64,000 nucleotides of DNA from Nitrospira sp. GTDB lineage: Bacteria; Nitrospirota; Nitrospiria; Nitrospirales; Nitrospiraceae. Below the pieces are notes generated by a model. It did no database searches and had not been told where the DNA came from. It saw only the letters and a list, made by a program, of their open reading frames with translations. The DNA lies in the NCBI GenBank assembly GCA_035968315.1, contig JAVYIN010000002.1, positions 124,001 through 188,000 on the forward strand, written 5' to 3'. Made by a program: the position numbers and the translations under genes. Below, piece after piece: positions 33,625 through 43,722 of the stretch; position 1 is the first letter of the stretch; the number at the start of each line of letters is the position of its first letter.

Positions 33625-33633
33625 CTCCACTGT

Positions 33634-35726
<2,093 letters not shown>

Positions 35727-41413: not shown

Positions 41414-41800
41414 TTAACGCTGAAGCTTCTTCCTTCGACTATTTCCAAGACGATATTGGTATGGAGACAGTCGCTTCAATACGCCGTTTCTTATCGTGAA
41501 CTTCACAACCGCATATCCTGGCCCAAGAATCTCTGCCACGCACGCAGCGACCTCTTGCCTCTTAAACAAAGTCCCCTGTTCCGGATTGTTCACCGCAAAT
41601 GTATCGGTCGAAACGTTGTAGTAAAAAACAAACCGCCGACTCAATGCCGAGGTGATGATATAGCGTATCGGGCTCTCCATCTCTCGAACCCGCCGTTTGA
41701 TCTCCTTGGCCCACTCAGGAGAAAGTGGAGCCTCTTCCCCCTCAACCTCCTTCATGATCTTTGAAACAGAAGACCTCGGCTTATCTTTTTTAGCCCCCAT
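41414..41800 (-). CDS. Hypothetical protein, inserted between direct repeats
   Basis: A 128-residue basic protein of unknown function. It has a Lys/Ser-rich N-terminus (GAKKDKPRSSVSKIMKEVEG), then a predicted alpha/beta part with SPIRYIITSALSRRFVFYYN and LFKRQEVAACVAEILGPGYA, and a basic end. GGAAGG is six bases before the ATG. Base composition is less G+C-rich than the flanking genes. It lies between two 78-bp direct repeats, so it is probably a later arrival. Confidence 0.6.
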   Translation of the reverse strand: MGAKKDKPRSSVSKIMKEVEGEEAPLSPEWAKEIKRRVREMESPIRYIITSALSRRFVFYYNVSTDTFAVNNPEQGTLFKRQEVAACVAEILGPGYAVVKFTIRNGVLKRLSPYQYRLGNSRRKKLQR

Positions 41801-41855
41801 GACCAGCCTTCCAACGCAGACCATTCAAGATCGATTTAGCTACCAACAAGCACCC

Positions 41856-41933
41856 CGCCATCGCCGCCGAGTGGCAGAAAACCATCCGCGTCGATGAAGC
41901 CTCCTCAAACCTGCCGAAGGTTTGAGCAAAGAC
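41856..41933 (+). repeat. 78-bp imperfect direct repeat, copy 2
   Basis: This copy resembles the final 23 codons and stop of the gene at 41148 but has no start or upstream part. Differences include codon changes (A-P-S-N-S against A-S-S-N-L), so it may be the remnant of a related gene rather than a fresh duplication. Confidence 0.85.
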
Positions 41934-41986
41934 TGCTCTTTATGTTCATTCCTATTCCACGAATAATCCTAGCCACCATTTCAAAC

Positions 41987-43009
41987 TCAACGCAGTGTGA
42001 CTATCTCATTAATCTCAACGGCCCGGGCATTCTTTAGTATCAATTTCTGAAGCAAACTCAGTAAGACCGCGATAGCTAGGTCGGTCTGGGCAAAATATTT
42101 AGCAATCTCACCACTCGCCTCATCCTCACTCAGCCATTTGCCTGGGCGCAAAATAGGTGCCGCGCCATGCGCAAATTTGCTTCGAGTATCATGAAGGTCT
42201 CTGTACCAAATCTGATGGTTCTGCGGCGCACCGAGCACAGACTCCAACCGCCTTTTCACAATGCTGGCCGGTGCCCCTTGCCCTAACAATGCCTCGAACG
42301 CTTGAACACAAAGCTGGATTACATCTAAATCGTGTTCCGCTCGATGCCCTATGCGGATGATTGTAAACAAGGCCCGTTGCCACGGTTCACGGGCGACATC
42401 AAGGGCTAGGGCACCATTCCGCTCCAGCCACTCCCAAACTCTGGCCAACTCAACTCGTTCGAATGGTGGCCACCCATGCTTAAGCGAAGATTGATAGGCA
42501 AATTGGAGCTCCTCCGCAGACAAATCAAGCCACACTTCACTCTCAGCTCGTGACCAGATAGACCTTTCTGCACCGCGTCTAGCCTGGAACGAAGACCGAT
42601 ACAGGTTGCAACTACCAGGCACCGACAAATTCATAGCGAGATATAGATTCTGAAGGAAACGCTCAATGGCCTCATTACTCAACTGGGCAGGGTCAGTACA
42701 ACAGAATGTCAACACTATGCGGCTTCCTGCGGGATAATGCTTTTGGGAAACACGAGACTTCAGTCGAGCCTCAAAAGGCTTTTCACATCCCTTCTCCAGA
42801 TCGGCTACACAATCGAGTAATTGCAAGGTGTCAGTTGCATCAACACTGACCCAGTGACCTAGGTGCTCGCGATTCCTAAAAACATCTTGCGCTGCCTTCC
42901 ATGCACTAATGAGCCTCTGCACATCTGTCCTGCCATCAACAGTAGCAGCGTTTGCAAAATTCACTTTTACCTTTGAGGATTTTAAATGCCCTTTTGCCCT
43001 AGCCTGCAT
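41987..43009 (-). CDS. Putative Apea-like HEPN domain protein
   Basis: A 340-residue protein that I place tentatively with Apea-like HEPN proteins. The C-terminal third is helical and contains WYRDLHDTRSKFAHG, with the RxxxxH motif R276-H281, the ribonuclease signature of many HEPN proteins. The N-terminal two thirds are not recognised. HEPN proteins act as RNases in toxin-antitoxin and anti-phage systems; no obvious antitoxin is paired. The gene lies in an A+T-richer patch with different codon use from its neighbours, consistent with transfer. Confidence 0.6.
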   Translation of the reverse strand: MQARAKGHLKSSKVKVNFANAATVDGRTDVQRLISAWKAAQDVFRNREHLGHWVSVDATDTLQLLDCVADLEKGCEKPFEARLKSRVSQKHYPAGSRIVLTFCCTDPAQLSNEAIERFLQNLYLAMNLSVPGSCNLYRSSFQARRGAERSIWSRAESEVWLDLSAEELQFAYQSSLKHGWPPFERVELARVWEWLERNGALALDVAREPWQRALFTIIRIGHRAEHDLDVIQLCVQAFEALLGQGAPASIVKRRLESVLGAPQNHQIWYRDLHDTRSKFAHGAAPILRPGKWLSEDEASGEIAKYFAQTDLAIAVLLSLLQKLILKNARAVEINEIVTLR

Positions 43010-43204
43010 AAAAACCCCCGATAAGGCATTACTTCCCTACCCTATCCCTCTTCTGCTATCAACTGATCTGTACCAACCCTACCCTTCTCCCTCATTTTGC
43101 CGACAGTCAGGAGATCTCCTTATCGCGCACGTCCAACACAGACATCCCGAGGCTGTACGTTGAGCAAGCAATTACCATTCTCCTCCCCCTTACCATCTCC
43201 CCAG

Positions 43205-43320
43205 CGGATCGTTGTGTAGTTTTCTCCTGCGCGCATTGAGGGAGCACCGCCCTCAATGCGCGCCTTTGATAAATTCTTGCGTGCGCACTCAGCGAGCAAA
43301 GAAAACTACACAACGATCCG
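43205..43320. mobile_element. 116-bp inverted-repeat element (MITE-like)
   Basis: The terminal inverted repeats are 21 bp, perfect, at 43205-43225 and 43300-43320 (CGGATCGTTGTGTAGTTTTC and T). Inside is a perfect 14-bp stem, 43229-43242 with 43250-43263, around a 7-base loop, then a G+C-rich stretch. No coding capacity or clear target-site duplication is visible. The whole can fold as a cruciform. The rest of the gap, 43010-43204, shows nothing recognisable beyond A/T- and C-rich sequence. Confidence 0.7.
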
Positions 43321-43329
43321 CACCCTCAC

Positions 43330-43722
43330 CTACCCCATCACCGCCGACCCATGATGATGAATCATCAGCCACTCGTCCCCAATCCGCTCGAAGAGATTCG
43401 TGGCAAGGACCTTCGCCTGCTGCGGCTCATCGGACTGCTGACTGACGATATTTTCGATGCAGATGACCCAGGCCATGTCCCCGGCCACCTGAATCATGAC
43501 CTCGGACAATTCAAACTTCATCGAGAACGTATTATTGAAAATCAGTACCCAGGAATCGCGCACCTCGGGCCAGTCCGAGCGCAAGGCCCAGCCGGGATGA
43601 ATGCAGGTCACATATTCCTGATGCGCCCAGATGCGATCCATCTTGGCAATATCGAGATCGCCAAACGCCTCGTAAAAGGCTTGATTGGCTTTCGTTACTT
43701 CTTCGATCCGTTGTTCCAGCAT
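43330..43722 (-). CDS. NTF2-like (SnoaL-type) protein
   Basis: A 130-residue single-domain protein of the NTF2-like/SnoaL fold: an N-terminal helix (VTKANQAFYEAFGDLDIAKM), then WAHQEYVTCIHPGW, and strands ending in GDEWLMIHHHGS. This fold covers small-molecule enzymes and binding proteins; the reaction cannot be told. GAAGGAGG precedes the ATG. The 116-bp inverted-repeat element begins ten bases after its stop. Confidence 0.85.
   Translation of the reverse strand: MLEQRIEEVTKANQAFYEAFGDLDIAKMDRIWAHQEYVTCIHPGWALRSDWPEVRDSWVLIFNNTFSMKFELSEVMIQVAGDMAWVICIENIVSQQSDEPQQAKVLATNLFERIGDEWLMIHHHGSAVMG

What the first reader, a model, noticed from the sequence alone, without database searches (positions are those of the whole stretch)
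43205..43320. 116-bp cruciform-capable element with 21-bp perfect terminal repeats
Perfect 21-bp terminal inverted repeats enclose a perfect 14-bp internal hairpin, with no coding sequence. It marks the edge of an A+T-richer patch. It looks like a MITE or a protein-recognised hairpin element.
Basis: partly seen in the sequence, partly recalled or inferred. Interest (0 to 1): 0.6.

Follow-up and report, generated by a model that had tools for sequence, protein, structure and literature searches.

The report
Dispersed post-stop hairpin repeat of Nitrospira
The inverted repeat is one copy of a family of large hairpin elements scattered through genomes of the nitrite-oxidising bacterium Nitrospira, usually placed right behind a gene's stop codon, with a fixed core that keeps its unpaired bases and a 22-24 bp stem whose sequence changes from copy to copy but stays paired.

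Summary
The hairpin is real: 22-bp perfect arms (43204-43225 / 43300-43321) around a 14-bp inverted pair. It is not a MITE with shared ends: this arm sequence occurs once in the genome. The repeated part is the inner core. A covariance model finds 26 copies in this genome and copies in 36 of 37 sampled genomes of the family, against 6 of 50 others of the order. In 129 copies the unpaired core bases T·C, C·T and A are almost invariant, while the outer stem has no fixed sequence but stays paired for 22-24 bp and then stops. Between codirectional genes 72 copies have one orientation and 4 the other; 71 of 129 start from 6 nt before to 9 nt after a same-strand stop codon. Copies are mostly inherited and lost by deletion. 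A·C outnumber G·T mismatches on the sense strand (61:19), which points to the opposite strand as the folded one, probably as single-stranded DNA. No RAYT link, U-tract or Rfam match was found. Best reading: a Nitrospiraceae-specific, REP-like hairpin read by an unidentified protein. Function remains inferred.

The parts
43204..43321 (-). whole element, 118 bp, long class; canonical (sense) strand is -, the strand inferred to fold is +
   Evidence: (model R1, 110.6 bits, positions 1-116)
43300..43321 (-). 5' arm on the canonical strand (22 nt), locus-specific sequence
43204..43225 (-). 3' arm on the canonical strand (22 nt), perfect complement of the 5' arm
43281..43298 (-). 5' half of the conserved core (TGCTCGCTGAGTGCGCAC)
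43228..43247 (-). 3' half of the conserved core (GTGCTCCCTCAATGCGCGCA)
43231..43295 (+). mismatch G43231.A43295 on the + strand (T.C on the canonical strand), 129 of 129 copies on both sides
   Evidence: columns 33 and 170; window positions derived
43243..43285 (+). mismatch A43243.G43285 on the + strand (C.T on the canonical strand), 129 and 128 of 129 copies
   Evidence: columns 47 and 156; window positions derived
43235..43236 (+). two-base bulge of the core (canonical A invariant in 129 of 129, then T 106 or C 22)
   Evidence: columns 163 and 164; window positions derived
43229..43263 (+).
43322..43329 (-). 8-nt spacer between the stop codon and the element
43330..43722 (-). upstream gene on the same strand, SnoaL_3 / DUF4440 domain, 130 aa
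41987..43009 (-). next gene on the same strand, 340 aa, no Pfam family at E 0.001

Best explanation
SHOWN: the feature is one copy of a family of 92-119 bp hairpin elements restricted in practice to the family Nitrospiraceae. Each has (a) a conserved imperfect-palindromic core whose two mismatches and bulged A are almost invariant, (b) an outer stem of 22-24 bp with free sequence, kept paired by compensating changes, ending sharply, and (c) a preferred place and direction: just behind a stop codon, same strand as that gene. INFERRED: the folded molecule under selection is the strand opposite to the upstream gene's coding strand, most likely as transiently single-stranded DNA. A protein not identified here reads the unpaired core bases and needs about two helical turns of stem; the stem sequence does not matter to it, so it drifts with compensation, possibly helped by template-switch correction between the arms. 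Copies rarely spread (paralogues with near-identical cores share arms) and are otherwise inherited and lost by deletion. What the bound hairpin does is not known; a role as a REP- or attC-like DNA hairpin site is my first choice.
For: Family and copy number. Pairing: 30 of 38 pairs with changes on both sides, 83.7% of cells paired against 33.8-51.3% in slid controls (the structure was derived from the same 16 copies). Almost invariant unpaired core bases. Sharp stem end: paired 0.91 at 22 bp, 0.63 at 23, 0.40 at 24, 0.22 at 25, random 0.20. In situ compensation at orthologous sites with core identity of at least 0.85: 31 double changes, 29 still Watson-Crick, 6.9 expected if independent, 81 single. 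In 8 of 30 filled copies of the window's site the left arm includes 6-12 nt of the gene's own end and the right arm matches that species' variant. Strand: single-step states A.C 61 against G.T 19 on the sense strand, 44 against 17 outside arm positions 14-16. No enrichment of antisense promoters (16 found, 26.0 expected after shuffling) and few U-tracts. Orientation 72 to 4.
Against: The strict post-stop, sense placement would be more natural for something acting in mRNA. Over all mismatches the A.C excess is carried partly by arm positions 14-16 (76 to 3) and outside these and position 22 it loses significance when related copies are collapsed at 70% (26 to 15 clusters, p 0.12). Mutation bias between strands is not excluded. 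No binding protein or recombinase was found. 55 of 129 copies are not directly behind a same-strand stop codon. The fetched copies were the best-scoring ones, so conservation is overestimated.
Confidence: 0.42

Rival explanations
1. Sense RNA hairpin, like those E. coli REPs that sit within 15 nt of a stop codon: it acts in the mRNA by stalling the ribosome at termination, marking a cleavage point or protecting the upstream message. The sharp stem end would reflect an RNase or protein that measures two turns of dsRNA.
For: 71 of 129 copies start within -6..+9 nt of a same-strand stop codon; orientation 72 to 4 between codirectional genes; diverse upstream genes; post-stop REPs in E. coli stall ribosomes and lower translation (PMC12306157, passages). 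At a few sites relatives carry unrelated hairpins in the same post-stop place.
Against: A.C exceed G.U on the sense strand, the reverse of what RNA stems usually show (the usual pattern is recalled); the bottom strand is the more stable fold in 83 of 128 copies with RNA and 121 of 128 with DNA parameters. No RNA data.
Confidence: 0.3
2. A MITE or other transposon derivative moved in trans by a transposase, with arms as terminal inverted repeats.
For: Dispersed copies; 16 non-orthologous pairs with cores at least 95% alike share arms at 72/76% against 59% for random pairs while their flanks are at background, so a unit with its arms has been copied.
Against: Arms are not shared by the family; most copies of a close species pair sit at the same places; the best empty-like allele looks like a deletion; no match in plasmids or phages with this copy or in viral contigs with an exact core pattern.
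Confidence: 0.1
3. REP element mobilised by a RAYT (Y1 HUH transposase).
For: Hairpins with mismatches, intergenic, tandem clusters, near stop codons.
Against: G052 (38 copies) and G046 (20 copies), 99-100% complete, have no PF01797 match; none of 30 Y1 loci examined (of 55 matches) has a copy within the fetched flanks; no 5' GTRG tag seen; copies are 92-119 bp instead of 20-40.
Confidence: 0.06
4. No function: old palindromes kept perfect only by template-switch correction during replication.
For: Template switching can make and maintain hairpins (PMC8794818, title and start of abstract in the search listing); right arms track local gene variants.
Against: Almost invariant unpaired core bases, two fixed size classes, a sharp stem end in both classes and fixed orientation are not explained.
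Confidence: 0.12

Closest known systems
REP / BIME elements (E. coli and others)
   Same: Dispersed intergenic hairpins with unpaired bases in the stem, often close behind stop codons, sometimes in tandem (PMC12306157, PMC3733652, passages read)
   Different: 92-119 bp instead of 20-40; the conserved part is the core, the arms are free; no GTAG-type tag seen; no RAYT association; tandem neighbours mostly in the same orientation (9 of 10 neighbouring pairs)
Integron attC sites
   Same: Folded hairpin after a stop codon, bottom strand inferred as the folded one, recognition by unpaired bases, free sequence in part of the structure (attC features recalled; starts of abstracts)
   Different: No conserved sequence at the outer ends; next to housekeeping-type genes in conserved context, not in cassette arrays; integrase not searched for
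MITEs
   Same: Small, non-coding, inverted repeat ends, many copies
   Different: Ends not shared between copies; no target duplication or autonomous partner found
Intrinsic terminators
   Same: Hairpin just behind the stop codon
   Different: TTTT within 12 nt in 2 of 129 copies; often followed within tens of nt by a codirectional gene

Membership tests
REP with RAYT | RAYT gene in the genome | tested here: not met
   no PF01797 match in G052 and G046, which carry 38 and 20 copies
REP with RAYT | RAYT gene flanked by two inverted copies of the repeat | tested here: not met
   0 of 30 Y1 loci hold a copy; 30 of the 55 matches were available as loci
REP with RAYT | 20-40 bp palindrome with a GTRG-type head | tested here: not met
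   92-119 bp; 5' of the core only T or G is common; a GT follows the core on its 3' side
MITE | terminal inverted repeats shared by the copies | tested here: not met
MITE | empty site with target-site duplication | tested here: inconclusive
   near-empty allele in G019, G010, G152 but remnants in G020, G013, G158; no duplication recognised
MITE | autonomous transposon with the same ends | tested here: inconclusive
   only Y1_Tnp was searched; other transposase families were not
Integron attC | conserved outer boxes (RYYYAAC / GTTRRRY, recalled) | tested here: not met
   no conserved columns at the outer ends of 16 copies
Integron attC | integron integrase in the genome | not tested
Intrinsic terminator | U-tract after the hairpin | tested here: not met
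   2 of 129 copies
Described structured RNA (Rfam 15) | match to a family model | tested here: not met
   Searches (window, gathering; 4 loci, E up to 1): none at the element

The most novel reading that the evidence does not exclude
The family is a new class of single-strand DNA hairpin sites of Nitrospiraceae: the strand opposite to the gene folds, an unknown protein reads the unpaired core bases and measures a two-turn stem of any sequence, and the sites are placed behind stop codons by a mechanism tied to gene ends. It would be a third type beside REP/RAYT and attC/IntI, with its enzyme still to be found.
Probability: 0.2. Interest if true: 0.85.

Novelty: new variant of a known kind. Interest (0 to 1): 0.55.

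Why it matters
Dispersed intergenic hairpins have no settled function. This family separates what is fixed (unpaired core bases, stem length, direction, place) from what is free (stem sequence), which is a recognition code that can be tested directly, and it is widespread in Nitrospira, a main nitrite oxidiser of soils and water treatment. The strand asymmetry of mismatches offers a simple sequence test of RNA against DNA function for such repeats.

Tried and rejected
Rejected: shared-TIR MITE. RAYT partner. Replication-strand bias: in G022, with dnaA near 2.154 Mb, the copies do not change strand at that point; counted by eye, dnaA taken as the origin, terminus assumed opposite. Intrinsic terminator and antisense promoter. 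Rfam. Phage, plasmid or viral carriers.

An early idea, insertion with an inverted copy of the target, came from arms that seemed unique to each copy and from gene ends included in the arms. It was weakened by non-orthologous copies that share arms and by remnants at the near-empty site; it is not excluded for single sites. Gene lengths of 396-399 aa are an artefact of 1.2-kb flanks. The count of 676 double changes is inflated by register shifts; the gapped recount is. A tRNA control for G.U against A.C failed because the loci held only 3 tRNAs. Paper searches for Nitrospira with repeat or hairpin terms gave no description of this family; RepRanger lists N. moscoviensis only by counts.

Full report
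OBSERVATION. The element is as described, with small corrections: arms of 22 bp at 43204-43225 and 43300-43321, total 118 bp, and an exact 14-bp pair inside. No other exact inverted 20-mer pair with a spacer up to 200 nt exists in the window. It folds far better than shuffled sequence. It lies 8 nt behind the stop codon of a SnoaL-like gene on the minus strand. The source genome is a Nitrospira: the neighbouring protein is 96% identical to one of Nitrospira sp. UBA6493.

FAMILY. The terminal repeat is not repeated elsewhere, but blastn with the whole element found similar inner parts at many places of the genome. Aligned on the minus (canonical) strand, 16 copies share a core of two halves, about TGCTCGCTGAGCGCGCAC and GTGCTCGCTCAATGCGCGCA, separated by a long or a short loop, and each has its own outer stem. 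A covariance model of these 16 finds 26 matches in the genome at E up to 1. In 87 genomes of the order it matches 42: 36 of 37 in the window's family and 6 of 50 in other families, these with few and mostly weak matches. In 198 genomes of the phylum at E up to 1e-4 it matches 44, all in the window's family (134 genomes without match were not listed).

ANATOMY. For 129 copies (rows above 51 bits, overlapping loci counted once, one partial row dropped, plus one own copy; these were taken from the best-scoring matches, so they are a favourable sample) the core mismatch T.C is present in 129 of 129, the C and T of the second mismatch in 129 and 128, and the bulged A in 129. The outer stem shows changes on both sides at all 22 pairs of the 16-copy alignment. 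Counted outward from the core, pairing is 0.91 at 22 bp, 0.63 at 23, 0.40 at 24, 0.22 at 25 and then at or near or below the random level of 0.20, in both size classes. I fixed 22 bp when building the model, but the drop beyond it is independent of that choice.

PLACE AND DIRECTION. With a simple hexamer gene caller, 72 copies lie between two genes of the same direction as the canonical strand and 4 between two of the opposite direction; 23 lie in convergent and 23 in divergent gaps; 7 copies lacked a called gene on one side. 74 of 129 have a same-strand stop codon nearby, 71 of them with the element starting from 6 nt before to 9 nt after the end of the stop codon. The upstream genes are diverse; by eye some translations look like UvrA, GuaA, FabG and CstA (names from recall, not searched). 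Of the 74, 55 are of the long class; of the other 55 copies, 18 are. Tandem copies 32-221 nt apart are in the same direction in 9 of 10 neighbouring pairs.

EVOLUTION. At the window's site, 80 named loci were kept out of 89 found; 30 of 80 carry a copy starting -12 to +11 nt from the stop codon, of both classes, and some others carry half copies or unrelated hairpins there. In 8 of the 30 the left arm includes the last 6-12 nt of the gene and the right arm is complementary to that species' own version of them (6 to 12 coding nucleotides paired, at most one mispaired). Gradual compensation is visible between orthologous copies. In the close species G019 and G041 (one locus 95.6% identical) most copies examined occupy the same places. 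Three sites differ: one carries an internal deletion in G019, one has different arms in the two species, one has an unrelated hairpin in G041. At a further site G042 has a copy while G019 keeps only 19 bp between the conserved flanks. Of 29 genomes read at that site (30 loci, one without anchor; 56 of 59 genomes matched the query), I classify by eye 5 as filled, 3 as carrying a remnant of the left half, 3 as near-empty and 18 as having other sequence. Since remnants occur in more distant genomes, loss is the simpler reading (inference).

STRAND. Among 128 distinct copies A.C mismatches outnumber G.T on the canonical strand 204 to 84, against a ratio of 1.22 expected from composition. Part of this sits at arm positions 14-16 (76 to 3). 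Collapsed by relatedness at 70% the excess over the whole arm stays (33 to 13 clusters), but outside positions 14-16 and 22 it does not reach significance (26 to 15). Single-step states between orthologous copies give 61 to 19, and 44 to 17 outside positions 14-16; these instances are not fully independent. On the opposite strand these mismatches are G.T wobbles and the core mismatches become G.A. The natural reading is that the strand opposite to the gene's coding strand is the one that must fold. Antisense promoters are not enriched (16 found, 26.0 expected after shuffling), so single-stranded DNA is preferred over antisense RNA. This step is inference.

MECHANISM. Shown: family, anatomy, placement, compensation, inheritance and loss. 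Inferred: recognition of unpaired core bases by a protein, stem length as a ruler, folding of the bottom DNA strand. Not known: the protein and the consequence of binding. The RNA rival keeps 0.3 because placement behind stop codons is known to matter for E. coli REPs (PMC12306157, passages read).

COMPARISON. It works like REP or attC sites in that a hairpin with unpaired bases seems to be the recognised form, but it fails tested defining features of both, of MITEs and of intrinsic terminators (membership table). PMC3733652 (passages) reports REPs inserted in longer palindromes and REPs supplying stop codons, the nearest printed parallels I saw. I found no description of this family in the papers searched.

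VERDICT. A real, conserved, so far unnamed family of Nitrospiraceae hairpin repeats; interest 0.55.

Noticed in passing
window 33628-33730: TPP riboswitch on the + strand (Rfam RF00059, 69.4 bits).
   Followed up: no
L091 1465-2406 (own genome C5): A 313-aa Y1 transposase-like protein with its own inverted ends (TGGGGTCATTGCTTGACTTTGCACT type at both sides), unrelated to the element.
   Followed up: partly
L235, L239, L231, L253 just behind the SnoaL-like gene: Other, unrelated hairpin-like sequences occupy the same post-stop place in relatives, as if this place attracts hairpins.
   Followed up: no
L410, L411, L417, L418 and L391-L393, post-stop gap: Two more unrelated inverted-repeat types (CGTGAAACGTTATTCGTGAATCG type and GCTGTCAGCTGTCAGC type) in the gap where other species carry the element.
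   Followed up: no
L409 and L413, post-stop gap: In G135 and G043 the loop of the element carries an extra stretch of about 40-50 nt shared by both.
   Followed up: no
window 41414-43009: Two genes in the A+T-richer patch (136 aa and 340 aa) have no Pfam family; possibly acquired.
   Followed up: no
own genome C7 457545-459529: Three short-class copies about 0.85-1.0 kb apart, two with identical cores, separated by small open reading frames.
   Followed up: partly
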